Of a stretch of 64,000 bases of DNA, positions 32,997 to 48,984 are shown piece after piece (positions within the stretch are counted from its first letter, which is position 1; every line of letters begins with the position of its first letter). Source of the DNA: Psychromonas sp. 14N.309.X.WAT.B.A12 (GTDB taxonomy: Bacteria; Pseudomonadota; Gammaproteobacteria; Enterobacterales; Psychromonadaceae); NCBI RefSeq assembly GCF_030397575.1, contig NZ_JAPNXS010000004.1:186001-250000 (forward strand), written 5' to 3'. The notes beneath the pieces were generated by a model. That model did not search any database and had not been told where the DNA came from. It was given only the letters and a program-made list of their open reading frames with translations. Position numbers and translations under genes: made by a program.

Positions 32997-33049
32997 GGTA
33001 TAAAAAGCCTATTTTATCTGTCATAGAAAACCTTATTTAGTCTAACCTT

Positions 33050-33088
33050 AAAATATAAAGACATCTAAGCTTAATCGCTTAGATGTCT
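33050..33088 (-). terminator. Terminator of the NhaC-type transporter gene
   Basis: AGACATCTAAGC (33059-33070) pairs perfectly with GCTTAGATGTCT (33077-33088) with a 6-base loop. On the minus strand a T-rich TTTATATTTT follows. It lies 80 bases after the transporter stop. Confidence 0.75.
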
Positions 33089-33168
33089 GTGCACTTCTAT
33101 TTAAGGGGGGATGATGCGATTATTCGCTAATTTCTTTGGTCATTTTACTTAACTATTTTTATAGACTT

Positions 33169-34647
33169 TTAAGCAAGAATAAGAAAAAACACAACAGATA
33201 TTGCCGCTGTGATTAACGTATAAGGTAATTGCGTTAAAGCATGATTCATTGGGCTAATGCCGCATGCTTTAGCAGATAACACCGTTGAATCACCGTAGAA
33301 ACAAGCATGTGAACCAAAGGCCGATGCGGATATTAATGCACCTACGACTATGGGTAAATCTGCACCTAAGTTCATTGCTAGTGGTATAACAATCGGCATC
33401 CCCACAACAAATATGCCCCAGAATGATGCTGTTGCAAAAGCCAATGCTGCCATGGTGATAAATACAAGGGCAGGTAAGTAAGCCACTGTCATGAATTGAG
33501 ATACGGATTCAATCACATAGGATGTTGTTCCTAATGAATCATTTACCTGTGCTAACATAAAACCACAAAATAAGGTGCCTAATGGTGCAATCATATCGAT
33601 AAAGCCACTTAAAATAGCATCGAACATTTTTCCGATAGGCATAATATTTTGTACTGCATATAAACCTACAGTTAAAAAAATGGCAGCCATTGCACCGGCC
33701 ATAACGTCGATATCAAATAACCAAGTAAAGAATATAAGCGCACCGATTGGGATAAAGAAGTTAAGCATATTACTGTTTTTCACTGCTGGTTTTATTTCTT
33801 GCTCTGCTGCTGCATCTTCTTCACACAATACCGCTCCAGTAGTCATTGCACGTTCTTCAGCGGCTTTCATTTTACCGAATAAAGGAATGTTACGGTTAAT
33901 AACTAAAGCAACAACAATAAGACAAACCCAAGCATAAATCATATAAGGAATAGCGCTAATAAATAGATCCATGCCTCCACCTTCTCCTACAGCGCCAGTT
34001 TCCTCAAGCAAGCCAGAGAAAAATACAGCCCAAGTTGAGAAAGGTAAAATGATGCACACTGGTGCAGCTGTCGAGTCAACAATATAAGAGAGGAATTCAC
34101 GAGATACTTTAACTTTATCGGTTGCTTTACGCATTGATGAACCAATGGTTAGGGCATTTAAATAATCATCAATAAAAATCACCAACCCCAATGCCATAGT
34201 AGAGAATAATGTGCCTTTGCGACTAGTCACTTTATTGGATAACCAGTTACCAAAGCTGTCTGCACCACCAGCACAACTTATTAAAGCAATCATACTGCCC
34301 ATCAATCCACAGGCAATAAATATCCACGCAACAACATCATTTTGAAATACGGTTAAAAATATATCACCTAATGATGGAATAAATTCAGCCGGTGATTTAG
34401 TCATTAATAAGCCTACTATAACCCCAATAAATAGAGACTCAACCGTACGTTTAGTGTAGATAGCTGTAGTAACGACAACCAATACGGGTAATAAACTCCA
34501 AGCACCATATTCAGATTTTTCTGCGCCTATTACGTGGTAGCAAGCTAAGGCAATGGTGGCGACTATAAATGCGATAATGGTTACTTTAATATTGATATGA
34601 TTTTTTTGTATACGGCCTAATTCGGGACCCATCTTTGGTCTTGTCAT
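33169..34647 (-). CDS. NhaC-family Na+/H+ antiporter-like carrier, candidate agmatine/polyamine transporter
   Basis: This 492-residue inner-membrane protein has about 11-12 hydrophobic segments and belongs to the NhaC/ion-transporter superfamily. Typical segments are AGGADSFGNWLS, FIDDYLNALTIGSSMR with conserved aspartates, SREFLSYIVDSTAAPVCII, and SAFGSHACFYGDSTVLSA. Family members include Na+/H+ antiporters and carriers for amino acids. It lies immediately downstream of aguA on the same strand, separated by a hairpin, so a role in agmatine uptake or agmatine/putrescine exchange is plausible. That role is inferred from context; nothing in the sequence proves the substrate. Confidence 0.82.
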   Translation of the reverse strand: MTRPKMGPELGRIQKNHINIKVTIIAFIVATIALACYHVIGAEKSEYGAWSLLPVLVVVTTAIYTKRTVESLFIGVIVGLLMTKSPAEFIPSLGDIFLTVFQNDVVAWIFIACGLMGSMIALISCAGGADSFGNWLSNKVTSRKGTLFSTMALGLVIFIDDYLNALTIGSSMRKATDKVKVSREFLSYIVDSTAAPVCIILPFSTWAVFFSGLLEETGAVGEGGGMDLFISAIPYMIYAWVCLIVVALVINRNIPLFGKMKAAEERAMTTGAVLCEEDAAAEQEIKPAVKNSNMLNFFIPIGALIFFTWLFDIDVMAGAMAAIFLTVGLYAVQNIMPIGKMFDAILSGFIDMIAPLGTLFCGFMLAQVNDSLGTTSYVIESVSQFMTVAYLPALVFITMAALAFATASFWGIFVVGMPIVIPLAMNLGADLPIVVGALISASAFGSHACFYGDSTVLSAKACGISPMNHALTQLPYTLITAAISVVFFLILA

Positions 34648-34722
34648 GATTAACTTCCTTTGTATTCTCTTTCAGAACCATGATGCATCAGCAATGATAA
34701 TGGTTCATGGTATTATTTTTAA

Positions 34723-34756
34723 AACATTAAATTGCAATGTTTGGCAATCTAATGTT
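34723..34756. terminator. Hairpin between aguA and the NhaC-type gene
   Basis: AACATTAAATTGC (34723-34735) pairs with GCAATCTAATGTT (34744-34756) with one mismatch and an 8-base loop. T residues flank it on both strands (TTTTTT on the plus strand, TTTT on the minus). It may reduce read-through from aguA into the transporter gene. Confidence 0.65.
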
Positions 34757-34773
34757 TTTTAATTAAAGGGGGG

Positions 34774-35877
34774 TTATTTTTCGGTATTAATTACTTTAGG
34801 TTGTTGCTGGGTGATACAGTGGATATTGCCCCCACCAAGCAGTATTTCTCGAGCGGGAATACCAATGACTTCTCTATCTGGAAATTGTTCCGCTAAAATC
34901 GCTGCTGCTGTTTCGTCTTTTTTAGGATCTAATTTTGGAAAGACAATATGTTTGTTAGCAATATAAAAATTCGCATAAGAGCCTGCTAAACGCTGACCTT
35001 CTTCGCGTGGTTGACTATCTTCATTATCATCAATACCGGTGGCTTCTTCTTTACTGATAAAGAGTGGGCCAGGGTGGGGTAATTTGACCACTTTTAATTG
35101 TCTGCCTTGCGCATCAATGCTGTTGGTTAAAATATGATAAGCATCTTTAGATATTGCGTGTTGAGGGTCATTTGGATCATCACAGTAATGAAGAGCTACA
35201 ACACCTGGTTTAATGAAGCAACATAGGTTGTCGATATGTCCATCCGTTTCATCTTCTATGGTGCCTTGGTCTAACCAAATAATACGTTCTACATTTAAAT
35301 AGGCTTTTAATAATTGTTCAATCTGCTCTTTACTTAGATTTGGATTACGGTTTGGGTTAAGTAGGCACTCTTTTGTTGTAATTAATGTTCCTTGGCCATC
35401 AACATGAATTGAGCCACCTTCTAAAACGAGTGGGGCATCAAAACGCGTTGCATCGGTAATTTCACATACTTTTTGTGCTACGCGACTATCTTTAGACCAA
35501 TCAGGATAAAGTCCACCTTGTTCACCACCCCATGCATTAAAGTCCCAATCGACAGCGGCAAGATCGCCGTTGTCGTTGACTAAAAAACTTGGGCCAATAT
35601 CACGCATCCAAGCATCATTGCTACTCATTTCCACTACTTTAATATGGTCAGGTAATAGGTTACGGGCATTATCATATTGCTGATCACTCACTGCCACCGT
35701 CACTTCTTCACTTTTAGCGATTGCACAGGCAACTTCCACAAAAGATTTTTGGGCAGGTACGGCGTTTAAACGCCATACATCATTACGTTCAGGCCACAGC
35801 ATCCAACAGCCATCGTGAGGTTCAAACTCACCGGGCATTCGAAAACCTGCTTCTACCAAACTATTGTTATTTGTCAT
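34774..35877 (-). CDS. aguA: Agmatine deiminase (AguA)
   Basis: AguA hydrolyses agmatine to N-carbamoylputrescine and ammonia. It belongs to the peptidyl-arginine-deiminase-like guanidino-group family. From the chosen start, WMRDIGP is at residues 90-96, the catalytic histidine in TDGHIDN (H214) and the catalytic cysteine in GGGNIHC (C354). 367 residues, as usual for bacterial AguA. The ATG at 35877 has AGGTGG just upstream; a GTG three codons earlier is in frame. It is preceded by the aminotransferase gene with no room for a promoter, so the two are one unit. Agmatine specificity rests on strong family resemblance. Confidence 0.94.
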   Translation of the reverse strand: MTNNNSLVEAGFRMPGEFEPHDGCWMLWPERNDVWRLNAVPAQKSFVEVACAIAKSEEVTVAVSDQQYDNARNLLPDHIKVVEMSSNDAWMRDIGPSFLVNDNGDLAAVDWDFNAWGGEQGGLYPDWSKDSRVAQKVCEITDATRFDAPLVLEGGSIHVDGQGTLITTKECLLNPNRNPNLSKEQIEQLLKAYLNVERIIWLDQGTIEDETDGHIDNLCCFIKPGVVALHYCDDPNDPQHAISKDAYHILTNSIDAQGRQLKVVKLPHPGPLFISKEEATGIDDNEDSQPREEGQRLAGSYANFYIANKHIVFPKLDPKKDETAAAILAEQFPDREVIGIPAREILLGGGNIHCITQQQPKVINTEK

Positions 35878-35886
35878 GGCCACCAC

Positions 35887-37272
35887 CTATATGAATTTGT
35901 CTATTTTTAAGTCTTCAATAGTCGATTCGATTGCAGAACGAAGAATAGACACAACCTCATCTACTGTATCGCGTGTCCAAATAAGTGGAGGTGAAAGTAC
36001 ATTTAAGTGTGCTATTGGTCTAACGATTAATCCTAAATTTTGGCAATGTTGGGCAATACGCTTTCCAACATTGGCTTCATAAGGAATAAGTTCTTTTGTC
36101 TCTTTATTAGCAACACTCTCAATGCACATCATAAAATGACTACCACGTACATCACCTACAATTGATAACTCTTTTAATGTTTTAAGTTGTTGCTCTAAAT
36201 AAGGGCCTACTGCTAATACGTTTTCACATATTTTTTCACGTTCCATTATTTCGATATTTTTTAATGCTACAGCACAGGCAACAGGGTGACCAGAGTATGT
36301 AAATCCAGTACTAAAAACCGCACCTTTGGCTTGTGGTTTTTTGATTACATCGTAAATTTCATCACTTAATAATGTTGCACCTAATGGGATATAACCTGAA
36401 GTTATTCCTTTTGCACAAATGATGATGTCAGGTTGAATACCAAATACTGACTCACTAGCAAAGAAGTGTCCTAAACGTCCAAATGCGGTCACTACTTCAT
36501 CTGAAATAAATAGGATGTCATTGGCTTTACATAAATCAAAAATTCTTTTGTGGTAACCTTCAGGTGCGACTAAAACACCGCCTGCTCCCATAATTGGCTC
36601 TGCTATAAAGGCGGCAACTTGATCTGCGCCTCCCATTTCAGAAAGGTTGGTTTCAAAGTCTTTGACTAGATAGTCACAGTATTCTGCTTCATTCATTCCT
36701 TCAGGCATGCGGTAACAATTGGCTTCACTAATATGCGTCACTAAGTCGTTGACTACATCAAATCCTTCATTATTACCGACAGTCCCAGTAAGAGTTGATG
36801 CCATGTAAGTGGTGCCATGATAACCACTGTGGCGAGACATAATTTTCTTTTTACTTGGCTTACCAATCTGGTTGAAGTAATAATGGACAATGCGTATTGC
36901 CTGATCATTCGCGACTGAACCACCACAGCTGTAAAATACATGATTTAAATTAGATGGTGCTAGGGAAGCAAGTTTGGTTGAAAGTTGAATTGCAGGGATG
37001 TTAGATAAGTTATTAAAAGGTGAGTAATAAGCCATTTTAGTTGCTTGTTCAGCCATTACTTGACCCAACTCAGCTCGTCCATGTCCTATATTGACACACC
37101 ATAATCCTGCAATACCATCTAAATACTTATTGTCATTGATATCATAGATATACGCACCTTCACTGTGAGCGATGATATCGCAGCCAGATTGATGAAAGTC
37201 TGAGAAATCAGTAAATGGATGTACGAAGTGGTCTTTATCTTGTTGCCATAGTGCTTTAACATCATATTGCAT
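35887..37272 (-). CDS. Class III aminotransferase, putrescine--pyruvate type (SpuC-like)
   Basis: This is a PLP-dependent omega-aminotransferase of 461 residues. GIAGLWCVNIGHGR lies near residues 53-66, SGYHGTTYMAST at 149-160, the cofactor aspartate at D258 in SDEVVTAFGRLG, and the Schiff-base lysine at K288 in CAKGITSGYIPLGA. This form resembles SpuC/PatA2-type enzymes that transfer an amino group from putrescine to pyruvate, giving 4-aminobutanal, rather than GabT. It lies directly before aguA and divergent from the first LuxR-type regulator, across a candidate operator. The specific donor is inferred from context. Confidence 0.87.
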   Translation of the reverse strand: MQYDVKALWQQDKDHFVHPFTDFSDFHQSGCDIIAHSEGAYIYDINDNKYLDGIAGLWCVNIGHGRAELGQVMAEQATKMAYYSPFNNLSNIPAIQLSTKLASLAPSNLNHVFYSCGGSVANDQAIRIVHYYFNQIGKPSKKKIMSRHSGYHGTTYMASTLTGTVGNNEGFDVVNDLVTHISEANCYRMPEGMNEAEYCDYLVKDFETNLSEMGGADQVAAFIAEPIMGAGGVLVAPEGYHKRIFDLCKANDILFISDEVVTAFGRLGHFFASESVFGIQPDIIICAKGITSGYIPLGATLLSDEIYDVIKKPQAKGAVFSTGFTYSGHPVACAVALKNIEIMEREKICENVLAVGPYLEQQLKTLKELSIVGDVRGSHFMMCIESVANKETKELIPYEANVGKRIAQHCQNLGLIVRPIAHLNVLSPPLIWTRDTVDEVVSILRSAIESTIEDLKIDKFI

Positions 37273-37358
37273 ATTTATAACCCATTGTTTATTATGAAGT
37301 AAGTATCATTGAAGATATATCATGCTTTTTAAATTACTATCAGTGCTAAGATGTTTGA

Positions 37359-37376
37359 TATACCGCTAGGGGGGTA
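37359..37376. promoter_or_regulatory. Candidate operator A, TATACC-N6-GGGGTA
   Basis: TATACC (37359-37364) and GGGGTA (37371-37376) form an inverted-repeat-like site between the divergent aminotransferase and luxR-type genes. It ends about 42 bases before the regulator ATG and about 87 before the aminotransferase ATG. Similar sites occur at 38225-38242 and 46063-46082. Confidence 0.5.
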
Positions 37377-37418
37377 AATAGTTAATTTATTCATCTTTTA
37401 TTACACTAAAGGACAGTT

Positions 37419-38189
37419 ATGGATTGGAATAAATCAATAGCAAATATGATCAATCATATGTCGCTACAGAGTTGGCCTGGTGTCATGATTGAAAGTCTAC
37501 AAGACTTAGCGCATTTCGATACTTGGTTAGTTGCTACCTATAAACAACAATTCAAACCGATCGTTGTTCACACTTCGTATCAGATTGAATCGCAGAAGAA
37601 AATTCATCGCTTTCTTAATAAAGCCTATTTATTAGATCCGCTTTTTAACGCTATAGAAAATGGGTTGAACGACGGTTTATACCGTTTGCGAGATCTCGCC
37701 CCAGATCAATTTAATAATACAGAGCAATATAAAAGTTGTTACAGCGATTTTGATTTAAGTGATGAGATAATTTTTGTCACCCGTTTTGATAATGGTGTGG
37801 TGTTTACTATCTCTTTAGGTAGAACATCAAAATTAGGTGGAATTAGTCGTGTTGAGCTTAATCGATTAAAGAGTGTCCAGCCTATTTTACAAGCAATGAG
37901 TAAACAATTTTGGAATACACAATTTTCCCAGTATGTGCATGATGAGCAATCACGTTACTCCTTAGAATATGCAATTAATACTTTTGATAGTAACGTATTG
38001 ACGCCTCGTGAAAAACAAATAACTGGTTTGATATTGCAAGGACATTCATCTAAATCAATTTCTGAGTCGTTGAATATCAGTGTGGGAACAATCAAGGTGC
38101 ACCGTAAAAGCATTTATATGAAACTGGATATCTGTAGAGAGTCAGAATTATTCTCACAATTTATTAATCATTTACGCACCCTCTCATAA
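37419..38189 (+). CDS. LuxR-type regulator 1 of the polyamine island
   Basis: The 256-residue protein has a C-terminal LuxR HTH (about 194-250; LTPREKQITGLILQG, SVGTIKVHRKSIYMKL) and an N-terminal sensor domain of about 165 residues with no phospho-acceptor. The N-domain shares a pattern with the second regulator at 45209: YLLDP (70-74), then DLAPDQF (92-98), a YK..YS segment and a DE pair. No acyl-homoserine-lactone signature was recognised. It is divergent from the aminotransferase-aguA unit and just upstream of the M20 carbamoylase. It probably responds to a polyamine-pathway metabolite, which is inference. Confidence 0.85.
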   Translation: MDWNKSIANMINHMSLQSWPGVMIESLQDLAHFDTWLVATYKQQFKPIVVHTSYQIESQKKIHRFLNKAYLLDPLFNAIENGLNDGLYRLRDLAPDQFNNTEQYKSCYSDFDLSDEIIFVTRFDNGVVFTISLGRTSKLGGISRVELNRLKSVQPILQAMSKQFWNTQFSQYVHDEQSRYSLEYAINTFDSNVLTPREKQITGLILQGHSSKSISESLNISVGTIKVHRKSIYMKLDICRESELFSQFINHLRTLS

Positions 38190-38190
38190 A

Positions 38191-38242
38191 TATACCCCTC
38201 TCTAAGCAACCATTCTAGATAACTTATACCTGTAGGGGTATA
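38191..38242. promoter_or_regulatory. Candidate operator B plus a half-site upstream of the M20 hydrolase
   Basis: TATACC-TGTA-GGGGTATA at 38225-38242 is the best copy of the repeat, with perfectly complementary outer arms TATACC/GGTATA. A half-site TATACCCC lies at 38191-38198. The site ends 54 bases before the hydrolase ATG. Confidence 0.5.
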
Positions 38243-38296
38243 GGTTTGCTATCGCATGCTCCTTATTATCAAGGCAAACAGATATAAGGAGGTGTA

Positions 38297-39532
38297 ATGA
38301 ACAACCCAAGAATTAATCAAAGTAGACTCTGGGATAGCCTGATGGAAATGGCTAAAATTGGTGCCACAGAAAAAGGAGGCTGTTGTCGTCTTGCTCTGAC
38401 TGATATTGATAAGCAGGGACGTGATCTATTTATTGACTGGTGTATTAAAGCTGGTTGTTCAATTCATATTGATAAAATGGGTAATATATTTGCTCGCCGT
38501 GAAGGCAGTGAACAAAGAGTTGCAGCTATTGGCACAGGAAGTCATTTAGATACACAACCTACTGGTGGTAAGTTCGATGGTATTTATGGTTGTCTTGCAG
38601 GTCTAGAGGTGATTCGTAGTTTAAATGACCAAAACATCACAACCAGTCGTCCCATTGAAGTGTCTGTTTGGACTAATGAAGAGGGCTCGCGTTTTGCTCC
38701 TGCTATGGTTTCTTCTGGAGTATACAGTGGAAAATTTGATTTAGAATACGCACATCAACAAATAGATAGTGACGGTATCAGCATTGCAGAAGCTTTGCGT
38801 GCAATAGGGTACATGGGAGATGATGAAGTCGGGCAACGTGACCTGCATAAGTTCTTCGAGTTACATATCGAGCAGGGCCCAGTACTAGAGCAAGAAAATA
38901 AACAAGTTGGGATCGTTACGGGTGTGTTAGGCATGCGCTGGTATGACGTTACCCTAACGGGTACCTCTGCACATGCCGGCCCAACACCAATGAGTTACCG
39001 TAAAGACGCTCTTTATGCTGCAACACAAGTGTTTAACGAACTTTATCAAATCGCTGAAAGAGGTGAAGGTGAAGGTGCGCGTTGTACAGTGGGTGAGTTA
39101 GCTATAATCAAAGGTTCACGCAATGTTATTCCCGGAGATGTAACCTTTACACTAGATTTACGTCATGCTGAGTTAGCGGGTTTATCTGACTTAGAAGTAC
39201 AAGCGAAACAAGTTATTAAAAACGTGGCAGAAAGCACTGGTGTAGAAATTAAGCTTGATAATATTTGGGATAGTCCTCCTGTTGCCTTTAATGATGATTG
39301 TATTGCCGCTGTTAGTCATGCCGTAGAAAACTCTGGATTAACTTACCAACGCTTAGTCAGTGGTGCTGGACATGACGCTGTTAATATCGCCAGTGTAGTG
39401 CCAACCTCTATGATCTTTATCCCCTCTATTGGCGGTATTAGTCACAATGAATCAGAATATTCTAGCCCAGATCAAGTGGGAGATGGCTGTCAGATTCTGT
39501 TTGATGTGATACTTAATGAAGCGAATAAATAA
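38297..39532 (+). CDS. M20-family amidohydrolase (hydantoinase/carbamoylase type), candidate N-carbamoylputrescine hydrolase
   Basis: This is a zinc-dependent amidase of the family that includes N-carbamoyl-L-amino-acid hydrolase, beta-ureidopropionase and allantoate amidohydrolase. Metal-site motifs are in order: TGSHLDTQPTGGKFDG, VWTNEEGSRFAP, ELHIEQGPVLE, and SIGGISHNESEYS. The dimerisation-domain segment GTSAHAGPTPMSYRKDAL is typical. 411 residues. The ribosome site is a full AAGGAGGTG. Between the AguA unit and PuuC, and with no nitrilase-type AguB in the window, it is a strong candidate to split N-carbamoylputrescine into putrescine, CO2 and ammonia. The substrate has not been shown. 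Confidence 0.85.
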   Translation: MNNPRINQSRLWDSLMEMAKIGATEKGGCCRLALTDIDKQGRDLFIDWCIKAGCSIHIDKMGNIFARREGSEQRVAAIGTGSHLDTQPTGGKFDGIYGCLAGLEVIRSLNDQNITTSRPIEVSVWTNEEGSRFAPAMVSSGVYSGKFDLEYAHQQIDSDGISIAEALRAIGYMGDDEVGQRDLHKFFELHIEQGPVLEQENKQVGIVTGVLGMRWYDVTLTGTSAHAGPTPMSYRKDALYAATQVFNELYQIAERGEGEGARCTVGELAIIKGSRNVIPGDVTFTLDLRHAELAGLSDLEVQAKQVIKNVAESTGVEIKLDNIWDSPPVAFNDDCIAAVSHAVENSGLTYQRLVSGAGHDAVNIASVVPTSMIFIPSIGGISHNESEYSSPDQVGDGCQILFDVILNEANK

Positions 39533-39686
39533 AGGCGCTAAATAAACTAATAAACAAGAGAAAATTTAATAACCAATCACCTCTTGTCTATTAACTACTT
39601 TATAACTAGCTACTATTTACCAACATAAACTTCATATGTGTTGAGTTGGTACCTGAATAAATTAATCATTTAACATGGAGTATGGA

Positions 39687-41177
39687 ATGAAAAGTTACTC
39701 ACAATGGCAAGAGATGGCCAGCTCAATCAAATTTAACACGGATGCTTTTATCAATGGCACATTTGTTCCTGCGCAATCAGGGGAAACATTTTCATCAATT
39801 AACCCTGCTACAGGAAATGTACTTGCTGAGGTAGCAAGTTGTGATAGCGAAGATGCCAACATTGCTGTAGCAGCAGCGAAGCAGGTATTTGATTCTGGTA
39901 CTTGGTCTAGAAAGCCTGCTTTAGAGCGCAAAAAAATATTATTAAAGTTTGCCGATTTAATCGAACAACATACCGATACCTTGTCATTAATTGATACCCT
40001 AGATATGGGGAAACCTATTTCAGATTGCGTTGGCTTTGATCTACCTAATACAGTAGAAACATTTCGTTGGACTGCCGAAGCAATTGATAAAGTTTATGGT
40101 GAAATTTCACCGACTAATACTAACAGTATGGCGTTAATGACCCATGAGCCGATTGGGGTAGTAGCGGCGATTGTTCCTTGGAACTATCCATTAATGATGG
40201 CTAGTTGGAAAATTGCTCCTGCATTGGCGGCAGGTAATAGTGTCATTTTGAAACCTTCTGAGAAATCGCCATTGAGTGCACTGTTTTTAGCAACGCTAGC
40301 AAAAGAAGCTGGTATTCCAGATGGTGTTTTTAATGTTTTACCTGGCTTTGGTCATACAGTCGGTAAGGCACTTGCCTTACATAATGAAGTTGATGTGATC
40401 ACCTTCACTGGGTCTACCAAGGTAGCGGGTCAGTTAATGGGCTATGCTGGGCAATCAAACTTAAAACGGACTTGGCTTGAGGCTGGTGGTAAATCACCTT
40501 GTATTATTTTTGCCGATTGTGAAGATTTAGAAGCTGCTGCGTTTGCTGCTGCATTTGGTATCTTTTCAAATCAAGGCGAAGTGTGTATTGCTACTTCACG
40601 GCTATTAATAGAAGAGTCTATTAAAGATAAATTTATCAGCTTATTAGTAGAACAAGCGAACAAATTTATTCCTGGTGATCCCCTTAATCCAGAGACCAAT
40701 ATGGGCGCTATTGTTGACCAGCAGCACCTTGATAATATTCTTAGCTTTATTGAGTCTGGCGTTAGGGAAGGGGCTAATTTATTGTACGGAGGTAAACAAG
40801 CCACAGTGGATGGTCAAGGCTGTTTTGTACAACCAACTATTTTTACCGATACGCAACAAAACATGAACATTGTTGAAAATGAAATCTTTGGACCTGTTGT
40901 TGCTGTGAATACTTTTACAACATGGGAAGAAGCTGTTCGCTTAGCAAATGATAGTAAGTATGGCTTAGCAGCGGGGGTCTGGACTGATAACCTGAAAAAA
41001 GCACATAAAACAGCACGCGTATTGCAAGCGGGTATGGTATGGATAAATAATTGGGCTGGCAGTGATTCGACAACACCTTTTGGTGGTGTGAAACAGTCAG
41101 GCAATGCACGGGATAAATCTCTTCATTCTATTGATAAATATACTGAGATGAAAACCACTTGGATTGATTTAAGCTAA
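39687..41177 (+). CDS. puuC: PuuC-like aldehyde dehydrogenase (4-aminobutanal / gamma-glutamyl-aminobutanal)
   Basis: This NAD(P)-dependent aldehyde dehydrogenase oxidises the putrescine-derived aldehyde to GABA or its gamma-glutamyl form. Motifs: VPWNYPLMM, GNSVILKPSEKSPLSA, FTGSTKVAGQ, catalytic glutamate in LEAGGKSP and catalytic cysteine in NQGEVCIATSR, and the C-terminal PFGGVKQSGNARDKSLHSIDKYTE typical of PuuC. 496 residues (495 in E. coli PuuC). The ATG at 39687 has GGAG seven bases upstream; the frame could start at 39675. No PuuA, PuuB or PuuD occurs here, so the direct transamination route is more likely than the glutamylated route. Confidence 0.9.
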   Translation: MKSYSQWQEMASSIKFNTDAFINGTFVPAQSGETFSSINPATGNVLAEVASCDSEDANIAVAAAKQVFDSGTWSRKPALERKKILLKFADLIEQHTDTLSLIDTLDMGKPISDCVGFDLPNTVETFRWTAEAIDKVYGEISPTNTNSMALMTHEPIGVVAAIVPWNYPLMMASWKIAPALAAGNSVILKPSEKSPLSALFLATLAKEAGIPDGVFNVLPGFGHTVGKALALHNEVDVITFTGSTKVAGQLMGYAGQSNLKRTWLEAGGKSPCIIFADCEDLEAAAFAAAFGIFSNQGEVCIATSRLLIEESIKDKFISLLVEQANKFIPGDPLNPETNMGAIVDQQHLDNILSFIESGVREGANLLYGGKQATVDGQGCFVQPTIFTDTQQNMNIVENEIFGPVVAVNTFTTWEEAVRLANDSKYGLAAGVWTDNLKKAHKTARVLQAGMVWINNWAGSDSTTPFGGVKQSGNARDKSLHSIDKYTEMKTTWIDLS

Positions 41178-41203
41178 TAGTCGTTAATAATACTGTTACT
41201 CAT

Positions 41204-41242
41204 AAAAATCCCCCCTAATGCATTCATTAGGGGGGATTTTTT
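41204..41242. terminator. Bidirectional terminator between puuC and gabT
   Basis: AAAATCCCCCCTAATG (41205-41220) pairs perfectly with CATTAGGGGGGATTTT (41225-41240) around a 4-base loop, with T tracts outward on both strands. It serves both convergent genes. Confidence 0.93.
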
Positions 41243-41309
41243 GTTAGCAGCCTTTATAAAAACCTATCAGGGAATACCGCGGATAGGTTTAGGAAGAGGA
41301 GCAATTTAA

Positions 41310-42599
41310 CTAACTATTTTTATCTACCACGCTATTAAATAAACGAGTAAATTTATCTAAACCTTCATTAATAATCTCGTTTGAAATAGTTAATGCTGGT
41401 AGGAAGCGGATAACATTACCGTAGAAACCACAGGCAAGAAGTACTAAACCATGTTCAGCAGCATTAGCAATAATAGCTTGGGTTAATGCGGTGTTTGGCT
41501 GTTCAGCATCACCATTTTTAACAAACTCAATGGCTATCATTGCACCTTGATTTCTGACATCTAGAATGACGTCAGGATGCTGTTGTTGTAATTGACTTAA
41601 ACGTTGATGAAACAAATCACCTATCTCAACAGAGCGTTGTACTAGGTTTTCTTCTTCGATTACCTCTAAAACAGCTAAAGCAGCCGCGCAAGCAACTGGT
41701 GAACCACCATAAGTACCGCCTAAGCCACCAGGCAGTGGTGCATCCATAATCTCGCTTTTACCTACAACTGCTGAAATCGGGAAACCGCCAGCAATACCTT
41801 TGGCCATGGTCATTAAATCAGGTTCAACACCAGAATACTCAAATGCAAACATTTTACCAGTACGGCCAAAGCCAGTTTGAATTTCGTCTGCAATTAACAT
41901 GATCCCGTGTTGGTCACAAAGCTCACGTAATGCTTGCAGAAACTCAGGTGGGGCCACGTAAAAACCACCTTCACCTTGAACGGGTTCAACAATGATAGCA
42001 GCTACATCAGTAGGGCAGATATCTACCTTAAATAAGTTGTTTAATGCTTTAAGTGAATCTTTAACAGATACGTCATGACGATCCATAGGAAAAGGCGCAT
42101 GGAAAATATCAGAAGGGAACGGACCAAATAAATTTTTATAAGGTGTTACTTTGCCTGTTAATGCCATGGTTAAATTCGTACGGCCATGGAACCCCCCATT
42201 AAAAGCAATGACACCACGACGACCAGTATGTGCGCGGGCAATTTTCACACAGTTTTCCACTGCTTCAGCACCCGTAGTCACAAAAATTGCTTTTTTAGGT
42301 GAGTTACCTGGTGCTGCTGCTGTTAGTTTTTCCGCTAACGTGACTGCAACTTCATAAGGATTAACCATGACACATGTATGGCTAAATTTATCGATCTGTT
42401 GTTTTGCGGCCTCAACAATTTTGGGATGGCTATGGCCGGTATTGCAGACTGCAATTCCAGTCCCAAAGTCGATATAACGTTGACCTTCCACATCCCACAG
42501 CTCAGCATTTTTAGCATGCTCTACATATATTGGATAAATGTTGCCTTGCCCACGTGCGAAGGCTTGTGTTTTTCTACTTTGTAAACTGCTGTTTGTCAT
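41310..42599 (-). CDS. gabT: GabT, 4-aminobutyrate aminotransferase
   Basis: GabT converts GABA and 2-oxoglutarate to succinate semialdehyde and glutamate. Class III PLP fold: GTGIAVCNTGHSHPK, FVTTGAEAVENCVKIARAHTGR, PVQGEGGFYVAPPEFL, LIADEIQTGFGRTGKMFAFE and TMAKGIAGGFPISAVVGK with the cofactor lysine. 429 residues (426 in E. coli). The second ATG at 42599 is better spaced from AGGA than the one at 42605. It follows gabD on the minus strand by about 67 bases. Confidence 0.95.
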   Translation of the reverse strand: MTNSSLQSRKTQAFARGQGNIYPIYVEHAKNAELWDVEGQRYIDFGTGIAVCNTGHSHPKIVEAAKQQIDKFSHTCVMVNPYEVAVTLAEKLTAAAPGNSPKKAIFVTTGAEAVENCVKIARAHTGRRGVIAFNGGFHGRTNLTMALTGKVTPYKNLFGPFPSDIFHAPFPMDRHDVSVKDSLKALNNLFKVDICPTDVAAIIVEPVQGEGGFYVAPPEFLQALRELCDQHGIMLIADEIQTGFGRTGKMFAFEYSGVEPDLMTMAKGIAGGFPISAVVGKSEIMDAPLPGGLGGTYGGSPVACAAALAVLEVIEEENLVQRSVEIGDLFHQRLSQLQQQHPDVILDVRNQGAMIAIEFVKNGDAEQPNTALTQAIIANAAEHGLVLLACGFYGNVIRFLPALTISNEIINEGLDKFTRLFNSVVDKNS

Positions 42600-42666
42600 G
42601 TTCATCTTCCTGATAGATAAAGAGTTTGGCTATTTATAGTTTGTATTGTCAGAGAGTTTGCTTGGC

Positions 42667-44124
42667 TTATTTATCTAAACCACCCATACATAAATATTTA
42701 ATTTCTAAGTAATCATCTAAACCATATTTTGATCCTTCGCGACCACTACCTGATTGTTTGATACCACCAAACGGTGCTGCAGCATTAGAAATCATTGCTT
42801 CATTAATACCAACCATGCCGTATTCTAAACCTTCTGATACACGCCATACTCTGCCAATATCACGAGAATAAAAGTAAGCGGCTAATCCGACTTCACAGTC
42901 GTTGGCCATTGCTAACACTTGATCTTCATCTTCGAATGCAATGATAGGAGAAACAGGGCCAAAAATTTCTTCGCGAGCAATGGGCATTTGGTTGGTCACA
43001 TTAGTTAAAATGGTGGGTTGGTAAAAAGTATTACCTGCGCTATCTCGTTGACCGCCTAATAAAACCTTAGCACCTAAAGCAACAGAATCGGTTACTAATT
43101 TCTCAACGCCATCAACTGCACTTGAAGAAATCATTGGGCCAATGTCTACGTCTTTTGTTAAGCCATCACCGATATTTAGACTGGCAACGGCTGTTTTAAA
43201 TTTTTCAGTAAACTCTTCTAATACCGAACGTTGTACAAAAATTCGATTAGTACAAACGCAAGTTTGACCTGCATTACGGTATTTAGAAGCCATTGCTCCT
43301 TGCACTGCTGCGTCAATATCTGCGTCATCAAAGACGATGAAAGGTGCGTTACCACCTAATTCCATTGATACTTTTTTTACCGTTGAAGCACATTGTTCAA
43401 TTAATGTTTTACCCACTGCTGTTGATCCAGTGAAAGTGAATTTTGCAATATCAGGATGCTGCGTCAACACTTTACCCATCCCTCTAGAGTCATCACCTGC
43501 AACAACATTGAATACGCCTGCTGGAATACCTGCGCGCTCTGCTAATTCAGCCATGGCGAGTGCAGAAAGTGGTGTTAATGCCGCTGGGCGAACGACAAAA
43601 GTACAACCTGCCGCTAATGCAGCTGCTGCTTTTCGTGCAATCATCGCATTAGGGAAGTTCCAGGGTGTAATAGAAGCGACAACACCCACAGGCTGTTTAA
43701 CAACAACAATACGTTTGTCACTTGATGGACCTGGAATAGTATCGCCATAAACGCGTTTGCCTTCTTCTGCAAACCATTCTATAAATGCTGCACCATAGCC
43801 AATCTCGCCTTTTGCTTCAGCAAAGGGTTTACCTTGTTCTAAGGTTAGAATACGTGCAAGGTCATCTTGATGTTGAATCATTAAATTGAACCAGTTTCGC
43901 ATTAAAGTACAACGCTCATTAGCTGATTTTGCCGACCACTTTTTTAATGCTTTTTTAGCTGCTTTTACGGCAAGTTTGGTATCTGCCACACCAGCATTGC
44001 ATACCTTTGCAAGTTCTTCGCCTGTTGCTGGGTTGGTCACGCTAAAGAATGAATCGCTGCTATGCCAACTACCATCGATGTAGGAAAATGTTTTGAGTAA
44101 ATGCTTATCTTGTAATGCGTTCAT
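42667..44124 (-). CDS. gabD: GabD, succinate-semialdehyde dehydrogenase (NADP+)
   Basis: GabD oxidises succinate semialdehyde to succinate, the last step of the island's pathway. Motifs: ITPWNFPNAMIARKAAAALAAGC, split by conserved residues; FTGSTAVGK; catalytic glutamate in MELGGNAPFIVFDDAD; catalytic cysteine in NAGQTCVCTNR; and the C-terminal GIKQSGSGREGSKYG. The two-cysteine CVC at the active site is usual for GabD. 485 residues (482 in E. coli). The ATG at 44124 has GGAG upstream; the longest frame begins at a TTG at 44136. It is divergent from a LysR gene. Confidence 0.95.
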   Translation of the reverse strand: MNALQDKHLLKTFSYIDGSWHSSDSFFSVTNPATGEELAKVCNAGVADTKLAVKAAKKALKKWSAKSANERCTLMRNWFNLMIQHQDDLARILTLEQGKPFAEAKGEIGYGAAFIEWFAEEGKRVYGDTIPGPSSDKRIVVVKQPVGVVASITPWNFPNAMIARKAAAALAAGCTFVVRPAALTPLSALAMAELAERAGIPAGVFNVVAGDDSRGMGKVLTQHPDIAKFTFTGSTAVGKTLIEQCASTVKKVSMELGGNAPFIVFDDADIDAAVQGAMASKYRNAGQTCVCTNRIFVQRSVLEEFTEKFKTAVASLNIGDGLTKDVDIGPMISSSAVDGVEKLVTDSVALGAKVLLGGQRDSAGNTFYQPTILTNVTNQMPIAREEIFGPVSPIIAFEDEDQVLAMANDCEVGLAAYFYSRDIGRVWRVSEGLEYGMVGINEAMISNAAAPFGGIKQSGSGREGSKYGLDDYLEIKYLCMGGLDK

Positions 44125-44280
44125 GGTTATCTCCAAGCTTATATATGTTTAAAAATGCTTAACAGTTTGAACTTGCCACTAGTCTCATTGGCGAGACTTG
44201 CTCTGTGAGCTTATTGAATAACAATTTAAAATAAGGTTAAATACAAAACTTTAAACAATAAGTTTGAAGCGAGTAAAACT

Positions 44281-45207
44281 ATGAAGAAATCGTCGATAAT
44301 TCCTAAACCTATCGCAGAGTATGATTTGCGTTTACTACGGATCTTTGTTTCTGTGGTCGAGAATGGAGGATTTTCTGCCGCCGAATCTGCTTTAGGGATC
44401 ACCCGTTCTACTATTAGTATTCATATGTCTAATCTTGAAGAACGTATGAAACTGAAGTTATGTTTGCGTGGCCGCGGTGGTTTTGCTTTAACTGAGGATG
44501 GGCACACTGTTTATCGCGCAGTGATTAATCTCTTTGATTCCTTGAATGATTTTTCATTATTAGTTGGCTCATTGAGTAATGAATTAAGCGGTGAGTTAGT
44601 CATTTTATGTGCTGACCAATTAAATCAAACAACGCAAAATAAATTATCTCAAGTGATTAAAATAATTCATCAAGATTCACCAAACTTACACCTGGTATTA
44701 GACAGTGAACCTATCGCTAATATTGAAAAGTCATTATTAAAAGATAAAGCACATATTGGTTTATTTCCTGGATATCAACAAATAGAAGGCTTGACCTACC
44801 AACATATTACCGATGAGGCTGTTTATTTATGTTGCAGTAAAGATCATCCTTTTTTTAATAAAGTTGATACTGTAATTAGTGCTGCTGATTTGGCTGAGGT
44901 ACCTGCCATTCATCCTGGGGTGGATATTGAGCCTTCTGGTAGTGAGCAATTGAAAAAATTAAACCTAATGGCCAAGTCGTATCAATTTGATACACGTAAA
45001 GCGATGATTATGTCTGGAAGTTACATTGGGTTTATGCCGCAAAGTTATATTCAGGAGGAATTAAATCAAGGCGAGATGCGCATCATTCGCCCTAGTGAGA
45101 TAACTTACCCATTTAATTTATCTTTAGTGGCTAAAAAAACACCCCGTGAAGCTAATAAAGTTGCATTACTGACCGAAGTATTTAACCGAGTTTTTAATGA
45201 GGTTTAA
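44281..45207 (+). CDS. LysR-family regulator divergent from gabD-gabT
   Basis: The N-terminal HTH (about residues 16-75; DLRLLRIFVSVVENGGFSAA, RSTISIHMSNLEERMKLKL) is followed by an effector-binding domain with GFMPQSYIQEEL near the C-terminus. 308 residues. The 156-base gap to gabD is a natural shared control region, so GABA or succinate semialdehyde is a likely effector; this is inferred. It is a different LysR subtype from the one at 30237. It converges on the second LuxR-type gene with a 1-base gap. Confidence 0.88.
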   Translation: MKKSSIIPKPIAEYDLRLLRIFVSVVENGGFSAAESALGITRSTISIHMSNLEERMKLKLCLRGRGGFALTEDGHTVYRAVINLFDSLNDFSLLVGSLSNELSGELVILCADQLNQTTQNKLSQVIKIIHQDSPNLHLVLDSEPIANIEKSLLKDKAHIGLFPGYQQIEGLTYQHITDEAVYLCCSKDHPFFNKVDTVISAADLAEVPAIHPGVDIEPSGSEQLKKLNLMAKSYQFDTRKAMIMSGSYIGFMPQSYIQEELNQGEMRIIRPSEITYPFNLSLVAKKTPREANKVALLTEVFNRVFNEV

Positions 45208-45208
45208 G

Positions 45209-46018
45209 TTACAATAAAGAGAGAATCGGCATCAATAAGGCAAATAATTCAGCTTGTGAGCTGATATTACATTTTGCATAAAGTTGTTTACGAAATACTT
45301 TAACTGTTTCCTTACTAATATTTAAATTAAGGGATATCGAAAGCGAGGAATGGCCTTGTAATATATACAGCGCAACTTCCGCTTGTCTTGGACTGAGACT
45401 AATATCATGTTGTTCTTTTAAGGTCGCTCTTAGGCGTTGGGTGACTGGTTGCAGGACAATATTTATGCCCTCTTTAGGTTTATAGTGTCGCCAATGGAAT
45501 GCACATAATCTTGACAATATAGTTTCGTAGGATTTAATTCTTTTCAGCTCACCTTTACTAAATTGAACGCCGCTACTCTCATCTCTACCAAAACAGACTG
45601 TTAAGGTTGTTTCATGAGCAATCCCATAAAACAGAGCAAATTCATCCACTAAGGTAGTGTTACTGTAATATTGTTTGAAGTAAGTCGTTTGTTTGAATTG
45701 GTCTGGCGCAAGATCAAAGATACGATGAATACCTGATTGTATTCCTCCTAATACCCCTTCATAGAAAGGATCTAATAAATAAGCCGCTTTAACATAGTAG
45801 TTATCTACTTGATTATAAACGTTGTCATCATTGCTCTCTCGATATAACCCTTCGGGATTGTGATCTTTATGATAAGCAATGATGATCATGTTATCGAAAG
45901 TGACAATCTTACTTACAAAGTGACTTAATGCTTCAGGAAAGTTCGCGGTATCCAAGTGACGCACTAACTCGCCTAATGCCTTATCTTGCTTGCTTTGCAG
46001 GTTGCTGGTTATTTGCAT
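45209..46018 (-). CDS. LuxR-type regulator 2 of the polyamine island
   Basis: This 269-residue paralogue of the regulator at 37419 has the same layout: an N-terminal sensor (YLLDP at 80-84, DLAPDQF at 102-108, then YF..YYS and DE) and a C-terminal LuxR HTH (LSPRQAEVALYILQGHSSLS, SKETVKVFRKQLYAKC). The two share the N-domain landmarks in the same spacing but are otherwise diverged, so they may sense different ligands. It is divergent from potABCD across a region with the TATACC/GGGGTA sites, suggesting control of polyamine uptake. Confidence 0.85.
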   Translation of the reverse strand: MQITSNLQSKQDKALGELVRHLDTANFPEALSHFVSKIVTFDNMIIIAYHKDHNPEGLYRESNDDNVYNQVDNYYVKAAYLLDPFYEGVLGGIQSGIHRIFDLAPDQFKQTTYFKQYYSNTTLVDEFALFYGIAHETTLTVCFGRDESSGVQFSKGELKRIKSYETILSRLCAFHWRHYKPKEGINIVLQPVTQRLRATLKEQHDISLSPRQAEVALYILQGHSSLSISLNLNISKETVKVFRKQLYAKCNISSQAELFALLMPILSLL

Positions 46019-46062
46019 TCCTTTACCTAATCAAATAATTAAATTATGTATATTTATTAAAC

Positions 46063-46088
46063 CATACCACACTGGGGTTATATACCCC
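46063..46088. promoter_or_regulatory. Candidate operator C between luxR-type gene 2 and potA
   Basis: CATACC-N5-GGGGTTATA (46063-46082) resembles sites A and B, and overlaps GGGGT-TATAT-ACCCC (46074-46088), whose right part TATACCCC equals the half-site at 38191. It is 44 bases from the regulator ATG and about 87 bases from the potA ATG, almost the same geometry as site A. Confidence 0.5.
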
Positions 46089-46175
46089 TTACTGAACAAG
46101 TTTTATGATTAATTCCATAATATTCGGGTTATGTTTTTGTTTGATGGCTAAATAAAGTTGAAAAAGGAACTTATT

Positions 46176-47270
46176 ATGACGACTGCAATATCGCTTAAGT
46201 CAGTGACCAAAAAGTTTAAAGACTTTCAGGCTCTCAATGAAATATCTTTTGATATTCAAGAGGGAGAATTCTTTACACTACTTGGTCCTTCAGGATGTGG
46301 GAAAACGACTTTATTGCGCCTATTAGGGGGATTTGAACAAACCAGCACAGGTGTTATCGAGTTGTTTGATGAAAAAATAGAAAACCTGCCAGCCAATAAA
46401 CGTCCAATTAATACTGTATTTCAACATTATTCACTTTTTCCACATTTAACCGTCCATGAAAATGTGCAATTTGGTTTAAAAATGCAAGGTGTTGCAAAAG
46501 CGGAAAGAGTTAAACGTGCCGACGAAATGTTAGCACTAGTACAGCTTGAAAAATTTGCTGACCGTAAACCTAATCAATTATCTGGTGGACAACAACAACG
46601 AGTTGCCTTAGCGAGAGCCTTAGCACCCAGACCAAAATTATTATTATTAGATGAACCTCTCTCTGCATTGGATCTTAAATTACGTCAAAACATGCGTTTA
46701 GAGTTGAAAAAAATTCAGCAACAAACAGGTATTACATTTGTATTTGTGACCCATGATCAAGAGGAAGCATTAACCATGTCGGATCGCATTGCTGTCATGT
46801 CAGCAGGGCACTTACAACAATTAGGCACACCATCAGAAATTTATGAAGAGCCAGTAAATGAATTTGTAGCTGATTTTATTGGTGAAACAAATCTATTAAA
46901 CGTTAATGTGTTAAAGAAAGGAGAACATTCTGCTGATGTCACTATTCAGGCATACGATACAGAGCACCACGACAGTGCTGTTATTCAGGTACCTTACTTT
47001 AATCGACTATTTTTAGGCCCAACTGCAAAGTTATCAATCAGACCTGAACGTATTACGATTGGCCCTTTGACCGGAGAAACCCCACTCACTGCGATTGTTG
47101 AACAAAGCATTTATATGGGGACTGATACACAATATATTGTGACTCTTAATACGGGCTGTGAATTATTAATACGTAGTCAAAATATTACTAGTGAGAAAAA
47201 GACTTTTGAGCAGGGCGATAAAGTAAATATTAGTTTCGATCTATCTACAGCTCGTTTAATTAGGGGGTAG
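46176..47270 (+). CDS. potA: PotA-type polyamine ABC transporter ATP-binding protein
   Basis: This is the ATPase of a spermidine/putrescine importer. Walker A GPSGCGKTTLLR, signature LSGGQQQRVALARAL, Walker B LLLLDEPLSALDL, switch histidine in FVTHDQEEAL, and a TOBE_2 domain at the C-terminus (about 270-364; LSIRPERITI). The ATG at 46176 follows AAGGAAC; the longest frame begins at a TTG at 46158. 364 residues. First gene of potABCD. The ligand could be putrescine, spermidine or agmatine. Confidence 0.92.
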   Translation: MTTAISLKSVTKKFKDFQALNEISFDIQEGEFFTLLGPSGCGKTTLLRLLGGFEQTSTGVIELFDEKIENLPANKRPINTVFQHYSLFPHLTVHENVQFGLKMQGVAKAERVKRADEMLALVQLEKFADRKPNQLSGGQQQRVALARALAPRPKLLLLDEPLSALDLKLRQNMRLELKKIQQQTGITFVFVTHDQEEALTMSDRIAVMSAGHLQQLGTPSEIYEEPVNEFVADFIGETNLLNVNVLKKGEHSADVTIQAYDTEHHDSAVIQVPYFNRLFLGPTAKLSIRPERITIGPLTGETPLTAIVEQSIYMGTDTQYIVTLNTGCELLIRSQNITSEKKTFEQGDKVNISFDLSTARLIRG

Positions 47271-47274
47271 GGGG

Positions 47275-48962: not shown

Positions 48963-48984
48963 ACTAAATGAAAGGAGTTCTATT

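What the first reader, a model, noticed from the sequence alone, without database searches (positions are those of the whole stretch)
33169..44124. Agmatine-to-succinate pathway with no AguB; an M20 carbamoylase-type enzyme stands in its place
The island encodes AguA, a putrescine-type aminotransferase, a PuuC-like dehydrogenase, GabT and GabD, which complete agmatine to succinate except for N-carbamoylputrescine hydrolysis. That step is normally done by AguB (nitrilase family) or by putrescine carbamoyltransferase. Neither is seen here. An M20 hydantoinase/carbamoylase homologue (38297-39532), a family that splits N-carbamoyl compounds, sits between these genes behind a shared candidate operator. 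A non-homologous replacement of AguB is the simplest reading.
Basis: partly seen in the sequence, partly recalled or inferred. Interest (0 to 1): 0.75.

Follow-up and report, generated by a model that had tools for sequence, protein, structure and literature searches.

The report
Agmatine breakdown without AguB
A bacterium seems to break down agmatine with a uracil-pathway type of enzyme in place of the usual AguB, probably by leaving the carbamoyl group on until the molecule has become an acid and only then removing it to give GABA.

Summary
The island (genus probably Psychromonas) encodes AguA, an aminotransferase, a LuxR-type regulator, an M20 carbamoylase, a KauB/PuuC-type dehydrogenase, GabT and GabD. 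Three congeners and two Marinobacterium genomes with this M20 gave the same result.

In 148 genomes of the order, 27 of 30 AguA loci have one of those three enzyme types nearby. The other three, all of this genus, have M20. The AguA/aminotransferase/dehydrogenase/M20/LuxR set recurs in Marinobacterium and Halomonas, with one palindrome (TATMCC-N6-GGKATA) before M20 and the aminotransferase.

So M20 very probably removes the carbamoyl group in this pathway. Its substrate is less certain. M20 is a relative of beta-ureidopropionases and keeps the arginine that holds the substrate's carboxylate; a characterised relative cleaves N-carbamoyl-GABA. I therefore favour a reordered route: N-carbamoylputrescine is transaminated and oxidised to 4-ureidobutyrate, which M20 cuts to GABA. 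No activity was measured.

The parts
33169..34647 (-). NhaC-like Na+/H+ antiporter-family membrane protein, possibly a substrate or product carrier
   Evidence: PF03553, 71 bits; conserved near AguA in congeners, L019 and L094
34774..35886 (-). AguA, agmatine deiminase
   Evidence: TIGR03380 576 bits, cut-off 382
35887..37272 (-). class III omega-aminotransferase (PRK07036 type), directly upstream of AguA
   Evidence: NF005447 716 bits, cut-off 618; linked to AguA or AguA-family genes in Psychromonas, Marinobacterium, Halomonas, Phyllobacterium
37359..37376 (.). operator copy 1, TATACCGCTAGGGGGGTA, between the aminotransferase and LuxR1
   Evidence: 1 mismatch to TATMCC-N6-GGKATA; same position in L196-L198
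37419..38189 (+). LuxR-type (GerE) regulator, candidate pathway regulator
   Evidence: PF00196 54 bits; homologues in the clusters of L196-L198, L019 and L251
38225..38242 (.). operator copy 2, TATACCTGTAGGGGTATA, in front of M20
   Evidence: perfect inverted repeat, identical in four genomes; counterparts before M20 in L018, L019 and L251
38297..39532 (+). M20 carbamoylase, proposed 4-ureidobutyrate (N-carbamoyl-GABA) amidohydrolase; E128, Q193, H226, N276, R289, H359 and H383 conserved
39675..41177 (+). KauB/PuuC-type aldehyde dehydrogenase, same strand as M20 and downstream of it
   Evidence: NF007352 670 bits, under its cut-off; best solved relatives are labelled aldehyde dehydrogenase family protein (5iuu, 652 bits) and KauB (6b4r, 649 bits)
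41310..42605 (-). GabT, GABA aminotransferase
   Evidence: TIGR00700 582 bits, cut-off 507
42667..44136 (-). GabD, succinate-semialdehyde dehydrogenase
   Evidence: TIGR01780 698 bits, cut-off 646
44281..45207 (+). LysR-type regulator beside GabD
   Evidence: PF00126/PF03466; kept in G158
45209..46018 (-). second LuxR-type regulator
   Evidence: PF00196; kept in G076
46063..46080 (.). weak operator-like site between LuxR2 and the transporter (2 mismatches here, 1 in L198)
46158..50043 (+). PotABCD-type polyamine or agmatine ABC transporter (four genes)
   Evidence: ATPase passes TIGR01187 potA (371, cut-off 356); the other three match PotB, PotC and PotD best, all under cut-off; a homologous set lies beside AguA-family genes, the aminotransferase and AguB in Phyllobacterium

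Best explanation
The island is an agmatine-to-succinate route in which the decarbamoylating enzyme is an M20 metallo-amidohydrolase related to bacterial beta-ureidopropionase instead of AguB. Proposed order: AguA turns agmatine into N-carbamoylputrescine; the aminotransferase removes the free amine to give N-carbamoyl-4-aminobutanal; the KauB/PuuC-type dehydrogenase oxidises this to 4-ureidobutyrate; M20 splits 4-ureidobutyrate into GABA, CO2 and ammonia; GabT and GabD take GABA to succinate. The carbamoyl group would act as a protecting group that stops the aminoaldehyde cyclising, as gamma-glutamyl does in the Puu pathway (recalled). Shown by sequence: gene content, no match to AguB, PTC or AguY, conserved linkage, shared operator, conserved carboxylate-binding residues. 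Inferred: every substrate, and the order of the steps.
For: No AguB or PTC over cut-off and no full-length AguY homologue in the own genome, three congeners and two Marinobacterium genomes (completeness of the last two is not told). 30 of 30 AguA loci of the order have an exit enzyme nearby: 15 AguB, 9 AguY-like, 3 PTC-like, 3 M20 (tallied by hand). In nine members of the genus, own genome included, AguA over cut-off and island-type M20 occur together in 3 and are both missing in 6. Same gene set in Marinobacterium nitratireducens and a Halomonas replicon, with the operator before M20 and the aminotransferase. The four ligand residues named for the R. radiobacter enzyme, including the carboxylate-binding Arg291, map to E128, Q193, R289 and H383 and are kept in the 120 listed relatives of 6630. 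That enzyme cleaves N-carbamoyl-gamma-aminobutyrate (PMC10952681, passages). The second-best solved relative of the dehydrogenase is labelled KauB, which I recall oxidises 4-guanidinobutyraldehyde. A separate own M20 paralogue sits with dihydropyrimidine dehydrogenase PreA (708 bits, cut-off 335) and dihydropyrimidinase (609, cut-off 393), so the pyrimidine role is covered.
Against: No activity data. In Phyllobacterium a 55%-identical aminotransferase sits beside AguB (448 bits, cut-off 410) and two AguA-family genes, so this aminotransferase type probably handles putrescine there; the order of steps is not fixed by the genes. The island M20s carry a new acidic residue (D325, mostly Tyr in the Pyd-linked group) that could bind an amine if it lines the pocket; no coordinates were available to check. 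The genome also has an agmatinase, so AguA is not the only agmatine route. The three M20 loci of the order survey are one genus, not independent. AguB status is unknown for Halomonas sp. PA16-9, of which one replicon is held.
Confidence: 0.58

Rival explanations
1. Direct replacement of AguB, the first reader's reading: M20 hydrolyses N-carbamoylputrescine to putrescine, which the aminotransferase, dehydrogenase, GabT and GabD then degrade.
For: M20 fills the AguB slot; in Phyllobacterium the same aminotransferase type stands with AguB; island M20s have distinct residues C99, L211, M213, D325, N363, S377 against mostly V, Q, Q, Y, Y, C in the Pyd-linked group, so the pocket may have changed; AguY shows that such replacements occur (PMC12283126).
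Against: All mapped carbamoyl and carboxylate ligands are kept in the 120 listed relatives. The substrate analogues that I saw reported for the family carry a carboxylate, sulfonate or phosphonate (PMC10952681 passages), not an amine.
Confidence: 0.24
2. M20 acts on another ureido compound (N-carbamoyl-beta-alanine, or a ureido acid made from another guanidino acid) and only shares regulation with the agmatine genes; N-carbamoylputrescine is consumed by an unknown enzyme.
For: The family is broad; a third own M20 sits beside a DDAH-like deiminase, so M20s may serve other guanidine routes.
Against: Linkage and one operator with AguA genes in Psychromonas, Marinobacterium and Halomonas; the pyrimidine role is covered by the paralogue at C40.
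Confidence: 0.15
3. Chance neighbourhood: M20 has no part in agmatine use.
For: None beyond the lack of biochemical proof.
Against: Conserved linkage, shared operator, co-occurrence.
Confidence: 0.03

Closest known systems
AguA-AguB pathway (Pseudomonas aeruginosa type)
   Same: AguA (TIGR03380) makes N-carbamoylputrescine; downstream genes lead to GABA and succinate
   Different: No AguB; an M20 enzyme instead; probably a different order of steps
AguA-AguY pathway (Shewanella, Microterricola; PMC12283126)
   Same: AguB replaced by a non-homologous hydrolase linked to aguA
   Different: AguY is an amidase-family protein shown to act on N-carbamoylputrescine; here an M20 metallo-enzyme of unmeasured activity
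Bacterial beta-ureidopropionase / N-carbamoyl-beta-alanine amidohydrolase (RrCbAA, PMC10952681; solved relatives 5thw and 8c46)
   Same: Same family and same mapped carbamoyl and carboxylate ligands; the characterised enzyme also cleaves N-carbamoyl-GABA
   Different: Island enzymes form their own supported clade, have no PydA/PydB neighbours and differ at C99, L211, M213, D325, N363, S377
4-Guanidinobutyrate route and Puu pathway (recalled)
   Same: Far nitrogen masked while the amine is removed, then a KauB/PuuC-type dehydrogenase, and unmasking last to GABA
   Different: The mask would be a carbamoyl group and the unmasking enzyme an M20 carbamoylase, not guanidinobutyrase or PuuD

Membership tests
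AguB N-carbamoylputrescine amidohydrolase (nitrilase family) | match to TIGR03381 over cut-off anywhere in the genome | tested here: not met
   best 95 bits against 410
Putrescine carbamoyltransferase route | match to TIGR04384 over cut-off | tested here: not met
   best 240 bits against 500, an ornithine carbamoyltransferase; 0 of 7 genomes over cut-off, best 279. PTC-like genes elsewhere in the order score 432-482, themselves under the cut-off, still far above these
AguY N-carbamoylputrescine amidohydrolase (amidase family) | full-length homologue of the AguA-linked amidase | tested here: not met
   best own hit 83 bits over 12-243 of 567; positive control G142 1124 bits.
M20 beta-ureidopropionase / carbamoylase family | family profile and solved relatives | tested here: met
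   NF006769 596 bits, cut-off 452; 5thw 463 bits
M20 beta-ureidopropionase / carbamoylase family | carbamoyl and carboxylate ligands E131, Q196, R291, H385 of RrCbAA | tested here: met
   map to E128, Q193, R289, H383, taking a constant offset of 6 between paper and 8c46 chain numbering
Allantoate deiminase AllC | match to TIGR03176 over cut-off | tested here: not met
   283 bits against 598
Pyrimidine-catabolic beta-ureidopropionase (Pyd) | genomic link to dihydropyrimidinase / dihydropyrimidine dehydrogenase | tested here: not met
   island M20 has neither neighbour; the own paralogue in L194 has both
Pyrimidine-catabolic beta-ureidopropionase (Pyd) | place in the Pyd clade | tested here: not met
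   six island rows form a clade outside it (support 97; 96; quick trees without bootstrap)
4-ureidobutyrate amidohydrolase activity | hydrolysis of 4-ureidobutyrate to GABA | not testable with these tools
   needs an enzyme assay

The most novel reading that the evidence does not exclude
A carbamoyl-protected agmatine route: AguA's carbamoyl group is kept as a protecting group through transamination and oxidation, and an M20 enzyme related to beta-ureidopropionase removes it from 4-ureidobutyrate, so that putrescine is never formed.
Probability: 0.58. Interest if true: 0.75.

Novelty: new variant of a known kind. Interest (0 to 1): 0.62.

Why it matters
It would be a fourth non-homologous way to deal with N-carbamoylputrescine after AguB, PTC and AguY. 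If the order is as proposed, it would be a route that bypasses putrescine after AguA; what my searches of the open library listed held none. It would give a function to an M20 subgroup whose members in Psychromonas, Marinobacterium and Amphritea are named only 'Zn-dependent hydrolase' by the sources shown, and it suggests a simple assay that separates the two readings.

Tried and rejected
AguB hidden elsewhere in the genome: rejected. The four nitrilase-family hits are at most 95 bits; I read two of their neighbourhoods and take those two for a Nit2-like gene and a plant-type nitrilase, by eye. Carbamoyltransferases: two own genes, 34-35% and 29-38% identical to the PTC-like proteins of the order; the first passes an ornithine carbamoyltransferase equivalog, the second was not scored. 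AguY: four own amidase-family genes, 26-32% identical over part of the AguA-linked amidase. M20 as the pyrimidine beta-ureidopropionase: rejected, that role has its own gene cluster.

The names in the order tally: AguB rests on TIGR03381 over cut-off and BLAST. 'AguY-like' rests on position, length and mutual identity; two of nine were scored and pass amidase model NF005127 (1150 and 1162 bits, cut-off 575), none was compared with the published protein. 'PTC-like': all three have TIGR04384 as best model but score 432-482, under its cut-off of 500.

The repeat search over 33000-46300 did not show the operator in the part listed (20 of at least 60 direct families, 25 of 234 inverted pairs); it came from comparing intergenic regions. 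The class-wide search with the aminotransferase found 4 of 369 genomes including the own; in the other three I read, by eye, gamma-glutamyl-polyamine or polyamine-transporter genes and saw no M20 on the 13-16 kb fetched. Structure prediction was not run: the tool returns no coordinates with which to measure the pocket. MAG G530 (L094) has an AguB-like gene (247 bits, under cut-off) two kilobases from the start of arginine decarboxylase (589 bits, cut-off 369), so L094 is not an AguB-free case. Halomonad aminotransferase-AguA linkage was first seen only as equal contig lengths, then read directly in one record.

Rows dropped: in the first tree six duplicate loci (L158, L159, L160, L188, L181, L186) and rows covering 85% or less of the query; in the second 13 distant rows removed and L251 added. 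L094 and L251 sit on long branches, so their places are unsure. The protein searches list the best 120 of 6630, 6750 and 2387 hits. Paper searches listed 40 of 264, 14 of 14, 1 of 1, 25 of 40 and 14 of 14 papers; titles and abstract starts were seen, plus passages of PMC4581275 and PMC4016543, which hold the words in other senses.
Full report
WHAT IS THERE. On the minus strand stand an NhaC-like carrier, AguA and a class III aminotransferase, reading away from a LuxR-type regulator; on the plus strand LuxR1, M20 and a dehydrogenase; then GabT and GabD on the minus strand, a LysR regulator, a second LuxR regulator and a PotABCD-type transporter. AguA is a clear equivalog (576 bits, cut-off 382). 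M20 passes NF006769 (596, cut-off 452), a subfamily named allantoate amidohydrolase; it fails the AllC equivalog (283, cut-off 598), so 'allantoate' is not a reliable name. The dehydrogenase scores best with PuuC but under that cut-off; among solved structures the two best matches are labelled aldehyde dehydrogenase family protein (5iuu, 652 bits) and KauB (6b4r, 649 bits).

NO KNOWN EXIT FROM N-CARBAMOYLPUTRESCINE. The genome (3.77 Mb, 43 contigs, 99.98% complete) has no AguB over cut-off and no putrescine carbamoyltransferase over cut-off (the best hit is an ornithine carbamoyltransferase). I found no AguY either: the best own hit to an AguA-linked amidase is a partial match of 83 bits, while a control genome gives 1124. 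The same three searches covered G076, G094, G158 (same genus), M. nitratireducens (G528), M. profundum (G529) and the MAG of L094 (G530): 0 of 7 genomes pass either curated cut-off, and the six named here besides the own give only partial amidase matches (best 112 bits). G530 has an AguB-like gene at 247 bits. The own genome does have an agmatinase (484 bits, cut-off 302) next to arginine decarboxylase (873, cut-off 624), and a second arginase-family gene, so AguA is not its only way to use agmatine.

WHAT STANDS IN THE SLOT. In 148 genomes of the order, 28 hold AguA over cut-off, at 30 places. I tallied by hand, what lies near each: AguB 15, AguY-like 9, PTC-like 3, M20 3. How firmly each is named is told in Tried and rejected; the three PTC-like proteins score 432-482 against a cut-off of 500. 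All three M20 places are in one genus, so this is one event, not three. Among the nine members of the genus in that sample (own genome included), AguA over cut-off and the island-type M20 (88% or more identical) occur together in three (G000, G076, G094) and are both absent in six; one of the six (G056) has a distant AguA/AguB pair instead. Over 24 members of the genus, 4 have the island-type M20. The genus is probably Psychromonas: one member's paralogous M20 is identical in the tree to that of Psychromonas sp. RZ5.

CONSERVED CLUSTER. NhaC, AguA, aminotransferase, LuxR1 and M20 lie together in G094, G158 and G076, with the dehydrogenase in the latter two and GabT/GabD in G158 (the G094 contig ends after M20). 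Among the 80 M20 loci kept from the genome collection, the only two at 65% identity are Marinobacterium; the one with enough contig (L019) has NhaC, AguA, aminotransferase, LuxR1 and the dehydrogenase, and the other (L018) has the dehydrogenase on a 6.7 kb contig. The rest, at 46-58%, are mostly linked to pyrimidine genes or unassigned. A Halomonas sp. PA16-9 replicon has LuxR1 (36%), the dehydrogenase (59%), M20 (51%; NF006769 551 bits), aminotransferase (67%; PRK07036 712 bits) and AguA (63%) together. A metagenome-assembled genome (L094) has LuxR1 (27%), M20 (46%), a distant AguA (154 bits, under cut-off), NhaC (47%) and aminotransferase (56%); its M20 lies in another part of the tree, on a long branch, so M20 may have been recruited more than once. 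Equal contig lengths suggest that the M20/aminotransferase link extends to M. jannaschii, a Granulosicoccaceae MAG and others (inference from printed lengths only).

SHARED OPERATOR. Comparing intergenic DNA showed TATACCTGTAGGGGTATA before M20 in all four Psychromonas genomes and a related site between the aminotransferase and LuxR1. The general form TATMCC-N6-GGKATA (at most one mismatch) occurs in Marinobacterium before M20, before the dehydrogenase and between aminotransferase and LuxR1 (L019), and before M20 and the dehydrogenase (L018). It occurs at three places in 2.48 Mb of other fetched loci, some of which overlap. In Halomonas a perfect copy lies between the divergent M20 and aminotransferase. 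In L094 no copy was found. In the window alone, counts at up to two mismatches are not above chance, and one of the three sites with at most one mismatch (58216) is away from the island. I chose the general form after seeing the sites, so the background count is a guide, not a test.

WHICH SUBSTRATE. The nearest solved relatives of M20 are carbamoylases, one of them an N-carbamoyl-beta-alanine amidohydrolase (8c46). In PMC10952681 (abstract and passages seen) the R. radiobacter enzyme binds the carbamoyl end with Glu131, Gln196 and His385 and the carboxylate by a salt bridge to Arg291 (modelled ligands), and its specific activity rises more than 1.5-fold when the carbamide group moves from the alpha to the gamma position of aminobutyrate. 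These residues map to E128, Q193, H383 and R289 (this rests on a constant offset of 6 between chain and paper numbering, and on 8c46 being that enzyme). They are kept in 6 of 6 island and 57 of 57 Pyd-linked proteins and in the 120 listed database relatives. N-carbamoylputrescine would put an ammonium group against this arginine. 4-Ureidobutyrate, one carbon longer than N-carbamoyl-beta-alanine, fits the known chemistry, and the island encodes what is needed to make it: an omega-aminotransferase and a KauB/PuuC-type dehydrogenase (downstream of M20 on the same strand in Psychromonas, divergent from it in Marinobacterium). I recall, not tested here, that KauB and PuuC oxidise aminobutyraldehydes whose far nitrogen is substituted.

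AGAINST THIS ORDER. In Phyllobacterium a 55%-identical aminotransferase sits with AguB, two AguA-family genes and a Pot transporter. There the free diamine is presumably the aminotransferase's substrate, and M20 then looks like a plain swap for AguB. The island M20s also differ from the Pyd-linked group at a set of positions (C99, L211, M213, D325, N363, S377), a sharp break in the database list: P0001-P0030 and P0032 carry L211, M213 and S377 together, none of P0033-P0120 does (P0097 has M213 and D325 alone of these). A changed pocket could mean a changed substrate. D325, found in 29 of P0001-P0032, is an added acid that might bind an amine. The Halomonas enzyme, in the same cluster, shares only M213 of these changes, which weakens any reading of them as the mark of the activity.

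JUDGEMENT. That M20 does the decarbamoylation in this pathway I hold at about 0.82; that it does so on 4-ureidobutyrate, at 0.58. In three literature searches (full text of the open PMC library; 40 of 264, 1 of 1 and 25 of 40 papers listed) I saw no paper linking agmatine deiminase with an M20 carbamoylase, or agmatine with 4-ureidobutyrate as an intermediate; unlisted and subscription papers are not covered.

Noticed in passing
L195 6841-11917 (own genome C42): A third M20 carbamoylase lies between a LuxR-type regulator and a DDAH-like deiminase (76 bits to NF045659, under its cut-off of 300), followed by an isopenicillin-N-synthase-like oxygenase (by eye) and transporter genes; it may be a parallel guanidine-to-ureido-to-amine module for another guanidino compound.
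   Followed up: partly
L039 9986-12220 (Microbulbifer yueqingensis): M20 directly followed by what looks like a homologue of the same DDAH-like protein (by eye), so the deiminase plus M20 pairing may recur.
   Followed up: partly
L058 5875-11227 (Microbulbifer donghaiensis): M20 near an aldehyde dehydrogenase (37% to the island's) and an amino-acid permease 43% like the AguD-type carrier of agmatine clusters; possibly another agmatine-type route.
   Followed up: no
L252 2652-12284 (Phyllobacterium sp. T1293 plasmid): Two agmatine deiminase family genes, a Pot-type transporter, the same aminotransferase type and AguB in one cluster.
   Followed up: partly
   Followed up: partly
L010 9686-13712 (own genome C7): Second arginase-family gene inside what looks like an amino-acid ABC transporter operon, possibly a guanidino-acid hydrolase.
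   Followed up: no
L094 11.2-13.7 kb: What looks like a TonB-dependent receptor lies between M20 and the AguA-like gene in the MAG cluster, perhaps an outer-membrane uptake gene for the substrate.
   Followed up: no
window 41205-41242: Intrinsic-terminator-like hairpin (CCCCCCTAATGCATTCATTAGGGGGG, then T run) between the convergent dehydrogenase and GabT genes.
   Followed up: no
L198 6971-8392 (G076): A second NhaC-like gene (41%) is inserted between NhaC and AguA in this congener.
   Followed up: no
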